A stretch of 64,000 nucleotides of DNA from Leptolyngbya ohadii IS1 (GTDB taxonomy: Bacteria > Cyanobacteriota > Cyanobacteriia > Elainellales > Elainellaceae), in assembly GCF_002215035.1 (NCBI RefSeq), contig NZ_NKFP01000006.1, positions 3,935,080-3,999,079 of the forward strand. Reading direction: 5' to 3'. The position numbers were made by a program, and so were the translations under genes. Below, in pieces: positions 1,025 to 2,868 of this stretch. The notes under the pieces were generated by a model. It worked only from the letters and a program-made list of their open reading frames with translations, was not told where the DNA came from and searched no databases. Each line of letters begins with the position of its first letter. Position 1 is the first letter of the stretch.

Positions 1025-2230
1025 ATGTCCGATCAATCCGATACGCCCCTCCTCACTGCCCTCCACGAAGCTGCCCAACGCGACCGTGCCGTTTTCCACA
1101 CACCCGGACACAAGCAGGGACAGGGTTCACCGTCCAGATTGGCTCAACGCGTAGGAGCCGCGACTCTCCAGGCAGACCTGCCCGAACTTCCCGAACTAGA
1201 CAATCTATTTGCTCCAGAAGGCGCGATCGAAGCAGCACAAAATCTGGCAGCAGAGGCATTTGGCGCAGCCCAGACCTACTTTCTGGCAAACGGTTCCACC
1301 TGCGGCATTGAAGCGGCAATCCTGGCAGTCTGTCAGCCCGGAGACAAAATCATTCTGCCCCGCAACGCTCATCAATCCGCGATCGCCGCCCTGATTCTGT
1401 CGGGAGCTATTCCCATCTGGATCAAACCTGTCGCAGACCCCACCTGGGGCATTGCCCACAGCGTCACTCCCGCTGCCATCCAGGACGCGATCGACCGCCA
1501 CCCGAATGCCAAAGCCGTCCTGATTGTCTCCCCCACCTACTACGGAGTCTGTGCCAACCTGGAAGCGATCGCCCAGATTACTCACACCCACAATCTGCCC
1601 CTAATCGTCGATGAGGCACACGGAGCGCATTTTGCCTTCCACCCCGACTTACCCCTTCCCGCCCTGCAAGCCGGAGCCGACATCGCGATTCAGTCCACCC
1701 ACAAAACCCTTTCCGCCCTTACTCAGGCAGCCATGCTGCATATTCAGGAAAATCGAATTGAGCGCGATCGCCTCCAGCGTGCCCTTCAGCTCGTCCAATC
1801 CACCAGTCCAAACTATCTGCTGCTGGCTTCCCTGGATGCTGCCCGTCAGCAAATGGCAACCGCAGGAAAAGAGCTATGGAGCCAAACGATCGCCCTCGTC
1901 GAGCAAGTCCGTCACCAGATTCGACAGATCCCCGGAATTCGCCTACTAGAAGCTGAAGCCGTCACAGAGTTAGGCTTTCCTGCCCTCGACCCCACCCGCA
2001 TCACAATCGATCTCTCCAATTTAGGCATTAGCGGCTTTGAAGCAGACGAAATCCTGCACCAGCAATTTGGCGTCACCGCCGAACTCCCCGGACTCACCAC
2101 CCTCACCTTCATCCTTACCTTCGGCAACACACACAGTCCGGCGCATTTCCCTCAATCACCTCAACATTTCCCACACCAAACCGATCGCAGTTCGGCCGAA
2201 CTGCGATCGGTTTGGTGTGGGAAATGTTGA
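1025..2230 (+). CDS. Orn/Lys/Arg decarboxylase-type PLP enzyme with a lost, chimeric C-terminus
   Basis: A fold-type I PLP enzyme of the ornithine/lysine/arginine decarboxylase family, which makes polyamines or their precursors. FHTPGHKQG lies near residue 25, VDEAHGAHF near 197, and the Schiff-base lysine is in STHKT near 227. ATG at 1025 is preferred; a TTG lies 18 bases upstream. Native sequence runs to about base 2126 (FGVTAELPGLTTLTFILTFGN). After that the frame reads through the reverse complement of the cbiT gene and stops at 2230. About 370 residues are genuine against roughly 480-500 in the family, so the C-terminal domain is missing and activity is doubtful. An assembly or amplification chimera would look the same. 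Confidence 0.85.
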   Translation: MSDQSDTPLLTALHEAAQRDRAVFHTPGHKQGQGSPSRLAQRVGAATLQADLPELPELDNLFAPEGAIEAAQNLAAEAFGAAQTYFLANGSTCGIEAAILAVCQPGDKIILPRNAHQSAIAALILSGAIPIWIKPVADPTWGIAHSVTPAAIQDAIDRHPNAKAVLIVSPTYYGVCANLEAIAQITHTHNLPLIVDEAHGAHFAFHPDLPLPALQAGADIAIQSTHKTLSALTQAAMLHIQENRIERDRLQRALQLVQSTSPNYLLLASLDAARQQMATAGKELWSQTIALVEQVRHQIRQIPGIRLLEAEAVTELGFPALDPTRITIDLSNLGISGFEADEILHQQFGVTAELPGLTTLTFILTFGNTHSPAHFPQSPQHFPHQTDRSSAELRSVWCGKC

Positions 2231-2485
2231 GGTGATTGAGGGAAATGCGCCGGACTGTGTGTGTATTGAGGGGGGTGAGTCCGGGGAGTTCGGCGGTGAC
2301 GCCAAATTGCTGGTGCAGGATTTCGTCTGCTTCAAAGCCGCTAATGCCTAAATTGGAGAGATCGATTGTGATGCGGGTGGGGTCGAGGGCAGGAAAGCCT
2401 AACTCTGTGACGGCTTCAGCTTCTAGTAGGCGAATTCCGGGGATCTGTCGAATCTGGTGACGGACTTGCTCGACGAGGGCGATCG
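1887..2485. repeat. Composite inverted repeat (fold-back rearrangement)
   Basis: Two nested inverted repeats share one axis region. The inner one is a perfect 138-bp palindrome, 2127-2264, centred on TTCGGCCGAA (2191-2200) with no spacer. The outer arms are 1887-2098 and 2274-2485, both 212 bp, the second being the reverse complement of the decarboxylase 3' region. Inner arms derive from cbiT and outer arms from the decarboxylase. A 68-bp direct copy of the inner right arm (2191-2258, one mismatch) recurs at 2513-2580 inside the cbiT remnant. Confidence 0.93.
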
Positions 2486-2868
2486 AGCGGGATGAGGAAG
2501 TTGCCAGTCTCATTCGGCAGAACTGCGATCGGTTTGGTGTGGGAAATGTTGAGGTGATTGAGGGAAATGCGCCGGACTGTTTTCAGCAGCTCCAGGATTC
2601 GCCGGACTGTGTGTGTATTGAGGGGGGTCGTCCGATTAAGACAATCTTGCAGGCAGCGTGGCAGCGGCTGGTTCCCGAAGGGCGCATTGTGGCAACGGCA
2701 AGCAATTTTGAAAGTTTGTACGCTATATCAGAAGGGTTGGCAGAACTTCGTGCCCGCAACATTGAAGTTGTGCAGTCTGCCGTCAATCGGCTGGAAACTC
2801 GCGGCACCCATCAGCTTTTTGCAGCGGTCGATCCGATCTTTGTCCTCAGCGGCGAGAAGATGGACTAA
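2480..2868 (+). pseudogene. cbiT: CbiT-type precorrin methyltransferase, 5'-truncated
   Basis: Matches the C-terminal two thirds of the CbiT/CobL decarboxylating precorrin methyltransferase of cobalamin synthesis. The frame reads AIERDEEVASLIRQN, then GNVEVIEGNAPD, DCVCIEGG and a C-terminal VDPIFVLSGEK. AIERD is the acidic loop of the SAM site. The N-terminal glycine-rich SAM motif is missing: before base 2480 the sequence is reverse-complement decarboxylase, joined at GCGATCG. The first in-frame start codon is GTG at 2539, which would leave an incomplete fold of 109 residues. CbiT is normally near 190-200 residues, or about 400 when fused to CbiE. Loss of function is likely unless the junction is an assembly error. 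Confidence 0.75.

What the first reader, a model, noticed from the sequence alone, without database searches (positions are those of the whole stretch)
2127..2264. Perfect 138-bp palindrome with no spacer joins two genes in inverted order
A palindrome of this length with a zero spacer is hard to maintain in a replicating genome, because it extrudes and is cleaved. Here both arms are cbiT sequence in opposite orientations, inserted where the decarboxylase C-terminus should continue. Either the chromosome really carries a template-switch product that breaks two genes, or the contig is a chimera from amplification or assembly. Both readings matter: the first is a striking mutation, the second affects trust in this contig.
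Basis: partly seen in the sequence, partly recalled or inferred. Interest (0 to 1): 0.72.

Follow-up and report, generated by a model that had tools for sequence, protein, structure and literature searches.

The report
Assembly artefact imitating a DNA palindrome
The perfect 138-base palindrome is in the sequence as stated, but the same assembly holds many sites built the same way from local pieces, often joined through overlaps of about 10 bases, so it is almost certainly a badly closed gap in a draft genome and not a mutation.

Summary
Confirmed: 2127-2264 is a perfect zero-spacer palindrome (69-nt arms), nested in a larger inverted duplication (1887-2105 / 2267-2485). It stands where a decarboxylase-family gene should end and a CbiT-like gene should begin. 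Both are whole in the same-genus genome G001; the missing parts were not found elsewhere in the assembly.

It is not unique. In 1.264 Mb sampled of this 7.9-Mb assembly there are 15 local inverted-duplication clusters and 9 such palindromes; 1.07 Mb of other genomes has none, and one weak inverted pair. At the window and 8 other sites compared with G001, either 290-780 bp of the relative lack a counterpart (7 sites) or the flanks lie on different contigs (2 sites); local pieces fill the space.

Overlaps at the joins peak at exactly 10 nt (16 of 49 junction pairs; 25 of 49 at 10 or more); random switches reach 10 about 4 times in 100,000. The window's three scoreable joins are 10-11 nt with 0-2 mismatches.

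Best explanation: false gap closure by an overlap-joining program, perhaps fed by amplification chimeras. A real mutation is very unlikely.

The parts
1025..2126 (+). Orn/Lys/Arg decarboxylase-family gene (OKR_DC_1), 5' part; the reading departs from the relative after ...FILTFGN
   Evidence: Pfam PF01276, E 4.7e-82; G001 has a whole frame, whose C-terminal piece matches PF03711
2127..2264 (.). perfect palindrome, 69-nt arms, no spacer; both arms derive from the cbiT-like gene
2191..2200 (.). centre of the palindrome: a 10-nt overlap joining two opposite readings of cbiT; the two sources agree at 8 of 10 positions
   Evidence: window junction 2198/2193
2248..2258 (+). 11-nt direct overlap CGCCGGACTGT across which the palindrome copy skips 30 nt of cbiT
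2267..2276 (.). 10-nt overlap (9 of 10 identical) where cbiT sequence passes into inverted decarboxylase sequence
2267..2485 (-). inverted exact copy of decarboxylase 1887-2105
2478..2868 (+). remaining 3' part of the cbiT-like gene, in frame to the stop; about 70 N-terminal codons are missing
   Evidence: 81% DNA identity to G001

Best explanation
The stretch of about 350 bases from 2127 to about 2478 is not chromosomal sequence but a wrongly closed gap in a draft assembly. The true sequence between the decarboxylase 3' part and the cbiT 5' part (about 780 bp in the same-genus relative) was not assembled. A closing step then crossed the gap by joining local pieces, in either orientation, where about 10 bases overlapped. 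A self-complementary or nearly self-complementary 10-mer makes such a walk turn back on itself, which yields a perfect palindrome with no spacer. Shown here: recurrence of such sites, missing relative sequence, local origin of the pieces at the sites compared, and the 10-nt mode of the joins. Inferred: that software made the joins, and what kind; amplification chimeras among the reads may have contributed. The confidence given is for an artefact of this general kind; for a joiner with a 10-nt minimum in particular I would say about 0.75.
For: (1) Same build elsewhere in the assembly: 14 clusters of local inverted duplication in 864 kb, 15 in 1,264 kb; zero-spacer perfect palindromes with arms of 20 nt or more, 8 in 864 kb and 9 in 1,264 kb, with no motif common to the centres by eye. 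(2) Control at the same thresholds: 133 loci from other genomes, 1,068,487 bases, 0 such palindromes and 1 inverted pair (61 nt, 85%). (3) Nine sites, the window included, were aligned to G001: at seven (window, L156 twice, L157, L170, L141, L167) about 290-780 bp of G001 lack a counterpart in place, and at two (L159, L171) the flanks match different G001 contigs. (4) Joins: 16 of 49 junction pairs overlap by exactly 10 nt, 9 by 11-14, with at most 3 at any other single length; random switch points reach 10 or more about 4 times in 100,000. Five turn-back centres are perfect 10-nt palindromes in the source sequence, in L153, L156, L157, L159 and L162. (5) The window's three scoreable joins are 10, 11 and 10 nt with 2, 0 and 1 mismatches. 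(6) The missing decarboxylase C-terminus has no match better than E 0.157 in the assembly, and the missing cbiT N-terminus has only distant ones, at best 36% identity. (7) Such a rule exists in published software: GapFiller merges two extensions at an overlap of at least 10 nt by default (PMC3446322, passages).
Against: No reads were available. 24 of 49 junction pairs have overlaps under 10 nt (15 at 1-9, 9 at 0 to -4); some become about 10 with mismatches, others do not. Some pairs are mirror images or share an end, so the independent number is below 49. The mean excess over 10 is 0.84 against about 0.33 for a pure minimum-10 joiner. GapFiller, in the passages seen, merges two extensions once per gap and extends by 30-mers, whereas many of these sites have several joins each. 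The 14 clusters are not all alike: zero-spacer palindromes occur at 7 of them. At L167 the inverted pieces did not align to G001 and only a direct repeat of flank did; at L141 about 77 bp of the otherwise missing interval appear in the filling. The window contains no N. G001 is itself a draft of about 100 contigs.
Confidence: 0.93

Rival explanations
1. Chimeras made during whole-genome amplification (multiple displacement amplification) are the whole cause: displaced 3' ends re-prime on nearby opposite strands, giving inverted segments with intervening deletions, and these entered the consensus where coverage was thin. This overlaps with the best explanation, so the odds do not sum to one.
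For: The MDA study reports 406 of 475 chimeras inverted, with intervening deletions, and priming at 2-21 nt of complementarity in 76.8% of junctions (PMC1855051, abstract and passages). Palindromic reads after amplification are known to harm assemblies (PMC6218980, abstract and passages). The local, inverted, deleting character matches.
Against: The mode at exactly 10 nt is not what a 0-21 nt range suggests; the distribution in Figure 4 of that paper was not seen (legend only). A strand folding on itself should leave a loop, but 8 palindromes have none (L146 has a 12-nt spacer). Whether this DNA was amplified is unknown; the record was not identified.
Confidence: 0.2
2. A real chromosomal rearrangement by serial template switching (a microhomology-mediated replication event) that broke both genes.
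For: Short overlaps at the three scoreable window junctions and the nested inverted segments resemble such events; a second CbiT-like frame exists in the assembly (C6:783119-783685, 36% identity), so loss of this gene might be tolerated.
Against: 15 clusters in 1.264 Mb of one genome, best BLAST pair 92-100% identical in each, against none of the palindromes in the control loci; the preferred overlap length; sequence of the relative missing at seven of nine sites compared. Long zero-spacer palindromes are unstable in bacteria (recalled).
Confidence: 0.04
3. A mobile or programmed palindromic element inserted at many sites of this genome.
For: Many palindromes in one genome.
Against: At the sites compared with G001 the pieces mostly come from their own flanks, and the centres share no motif by eye.
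Confidence: 0.01

Closest known systems
Erroneous closure by overlap-based gap-filling software (GapFiller is the example seen, PMC3446322, passages)
   Same: Merging at an overlap of at least 10 nt by default; reads recruited from near the gap
   Different: Several joins at many sites here; GapFiller in the passages seen merges two extensions once and extends by 30-mers. The program used for this assembly is unknown.
Chimeras of multiple displacement amplification (PMC1855051, abstract and passages)
   Same: Inverted neighbours with an intervening deletion, short shared sequence at the junction
   Different: Joins here peak at exactly 10 nt; the paper reports 2-21 nt in most junctions and 0-1 nt in the rest
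Palindromic reads after whole-genome amplification (PMC6218980, abstract and passages)
   Same: Forward sequence followed by its reverse complement
   Different: Those are artefacts of single long reads; here they are in the consensus and often chained

Membership tests
Gap-closing / assembly artefact | many sites in the same assembly and none in other genomes | tested here: met
   15 clusters in 1,264 kb; 0 palindromes and 1 weak pair in 1,068 kb of other genomes. Samples, not whole genomes.
Gap-closing / assembly artefact | a fixed minimum overlap at the joins | tested here: inconclusive
   clear mode at 10 nt, 16 of 49, and 25 of 49 at 10 or more; window joins 10, 11, 10 nt with 2, 0, 1 mismatches; but 24 of 49 lie below 10
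Gap-closing / assembly artefact | true sequence missing at the site | tested here: met
   7 of 9 sites compared lack 290-780 bp of the relative; at the other 2 the flanks match different contigs
Gap-closing / assembly artefact | reads do not support the sequence | not testable with these tools
   no reads available
MDA chimera | inverted orientation with intervening deletion, segments less than 10 kb apart | tested here: met
   at the window and most of the other sites compared (L167 only in part)
MDA chimera | broad range of shared bases at junctions | tested here: inconclusive
   overlaps range from -4 to 14 nt but peak at 10; the published distribution figure was not seen
MDA chimera | DNA was amplified before sequencing | not tested
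   organism and library of the record not identified
Real serial template-switch mutation | present in the living genome, confirmed by reads or PCR | not testable with these tools
   no reads or DNA
Real serial template-switch mutation | a rare, isolated event | tested here: not met
   about 12 clusters per Mb in the sample

The most novel reading that the evidence does not exclude
The organism truly carries on the order of a hundred fold-back rearrangements, made by a replication or repair pathway that switches templates at about 10-nt homologies, perhaps on some of many chromosome copies in a polyploid cyanobacterium.
Probability: 0.02. Interest if true: 0.85.

Novelty: not a real feature. 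Interest (0 to 1): 0.12.

Why it matters
An assembly that looks good by the usual figures (completeness 100, contamination 0.58, 8 contigs) appears to hold false sequence at about one site per 84 kb of the sample (15 in 1,264 kb). Gene losses, broken operons and palindromes read from it should be checked before use. The inverted self-match plus the 10-nt join is a simple screen that could be tried on other drafts.

Tried and rejected
Considered and set aside. (a) A snap-back at the small inverted repeat TTC...GAA at the centre, followed by a correcting mutation: it explains this centre alone, whereas at five other turn-backs the source has a full 10-nt palindrome. (b) A shared motif at the centres: none by eye; two of them contain GATC. 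(c) Hairpins or tandem repeats in the relative's missing sequence as the cause of the gaps: in seven intervals the best local fold stayed within the range of the surrounding sequence, and five had only short arrays of about 2-3 copies. (d) The missing gene parts having moved elsewhere: not found. (e) A guess, recalled only, that the strain might be Leptolyngbya sp. JSC-1: one literature search, listing only; not tested and not used. Two searches for papers on such gap-filling errors listed nothing on the point; only the listings were seen. The first control count left out loci through a naming slip (ctlB) and was redone. The NCBIfam scans that held the CbiT-like protein failed and were not repeated for it.

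Full report
Observation. The palindrome at 2127-2264 is in the sequence as stated: arms of 69 nt, fully complementary, no spacer. It lies within a larger structure. Decarboxylase sequence 1887-2105 recurs inverted at 2267-2485 (219 nt, 100%). The order is: decarboxylase, inverted cbiT piece, the same piece forward, inverted decarboxylase piece, remaining cbiT. The palindrome copy of cbiT lacks 30 nt present in the remaining cbiT, skipped between two copies of an 11-nt repeat.

Genes. The upstream gene is an Orn/Lys/Arg decarboxylase-family protein (PF01276). In G001, a same-genus genome, both are whole: open frames of 499 codons, and of 209 codons with a protein of about 200 residues. G001's contig of 103,196 bases has the length of a contig of 'Cyanobacteria bacterium FACHB-502'. 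By my own reading of the table (60 genomes, of which 59 are relatives), 22 of 59 relatives have both matches on one contig within about 2.5 kb and on the same strand; the others have them on separate contigs or far apart, or lack one or both. The missing decarboxylase C-terminus (best E 0.157) was not found elsewhere in the window's assembly. The missing cbiT N-terminus has only distant relatives there, the best at C6:783119-783685 with 36% identity.

The site is one of many. I sampled the window's assembly (7,902,459 bases, 8 contigs). In 864 kb (the window and 40 stretches) there were 14 clusters of close inverted duplication (pairs of 60 nt or more at 85% or more, at most 2 kb apart) and 8 zero-spacer perfect palindromes with arms of 20 nt or more, the latter at 7 of the clusters. 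With 20 more stretches (1,264 kb) there were 15 clusters and 9 palindromes; the added one, in L214, is very large. They are uneven: 8 of 15 clusters in 260 kb of contig C4, 1 in 280 kb of C1, and 6, the window included, on C6. At the same thresholds, 133 loci from other genomes (1,068,487 bases) had no such palindrome and one inverted pair of 61 nt at 85%. These controls are relatives and named cyanobacterial records, with 29 loci (L092-L120) mostly from other bacteria; several loci cover the same place.

What the sites are made of. Nine sites were aligned to G001. At seven (window, L156 twice, L157, L170, L141, L167) about 290-780 bp of G001 have no counterpart in place, and pieces of the flanks stand there instead. 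At L167 only a direct repeat of flank aligned to G001; its inverted copies did not. At L141 some 77 bp of the otherwise missing interval appear in the filling, and eleven aligned local pieces alternate in order and orientation. At L159 and L171 the flanks match different G001 contigs. The pieces that aligned come from the flanks, within about 2 kb. The other five clusters (L146, L153, L154, L160, L162) were not aligned to G001.

How the pieces are joined. From self-matches in the 14 clusters, I scored the overlap of consecutive segments. With one mismatch allowed, 49 junction pairs fell between -4 and 18 nt: 16 at exactly 10 nt, 9 at 11-14, 15 at 1-9, and 9 at 0 to -4. With no mismatch allowed, 14 were at exactly 10. 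Some pairs are mirror images or share an end. One search shows the sources base by base: five turn-backs sit on 10-mers that are perfectly self-complementary in the source, which yields a zero-spacer palindrome. In the window, the centre is a 10-mer agreeing at 8 of 10 positions, the skip uses 11 identical bases, and the passage into inverted decarboxylase uses 10 with one mismatch. The window's outer two joins could not be scored this way, because the natural sequence on one side is missing; alignment to G001 suggests 8 shared bases at 2478-2485. Random switch points in the same local pool share 10 or more bases about 4 times in 100,000.

Interpretation. A preferred overlap of exactly 10 nt points to a program. 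GapFiller, for example, merges gap extensions at 10 nt or more by default (PMC3446322, passages only). That this program was used is not shown, and several joins per site differ from its description. Chimeras of multiple displacement amplification are inverted and deleting too (PMC1855051, abstract and passages; palindromic reads: PMC6218980, abstract and passages) and may have been in the reads, but a published range of 2-21 nt does not by itself predict a peak at 10. About half of the junction pairs lie below 10, so the rule is not strict, or my scoring of them is imperfect. A real mutation would have to be one of perhaps a hundred in this genome, if the sample rate held throughout. I conclude that the palindrome is an artefact of closing a gap, and that the decarboxylase and cbiT-like genes are probably whole in the organism.

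Limits. No reads, strain or assembly history were available. Nothing in the relative's missing sequence explained why gaps arose there.

Noticed in passing
G000 C1:902058-930987 (in L214 and L230): A perfect zero-spacer palindrome of 28,930 bp (arms 14,465 bp) inside a 1.55-Mb contig; perhaps a misjoin, but far larger than the others.
   Followed up: partly
G000 contig C4 (L153, L154, L156, L157, L159, L160, L162): Fold-back sites are concentrated here: 8 of 15 clusters in 260 of 1,264 sampled kb.
   Followed up: no
L134:765-12436 and L135:618-1725: Many scattered N bases, in L134 often at multiples of three bases apart, as if mixed variants had been masked; L135 looks like ribosomal RNA by eye.
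   Followed up: no
L210:2502-7501; L133:6103-6363; L137:12722-13082: Runs of exactly 5000, 261 and 361 N: scaffold gaps, or stretches withheld by the data holder.
   Followed up: no
G000 C6:783119-783685: A second CbiT-like sequence in a 434-aa open frame (E 1.3e-24, 36% identity), perhaps a CbiE-CbiT fusion (recalled, not tested).
   Followed up: no
L159 and L171: Flanks of these fold-back sites match different contigs of G001, so some sites may also be false scaffold joins, or places of real rearrangement between the two genomes.
   Followed up: partly
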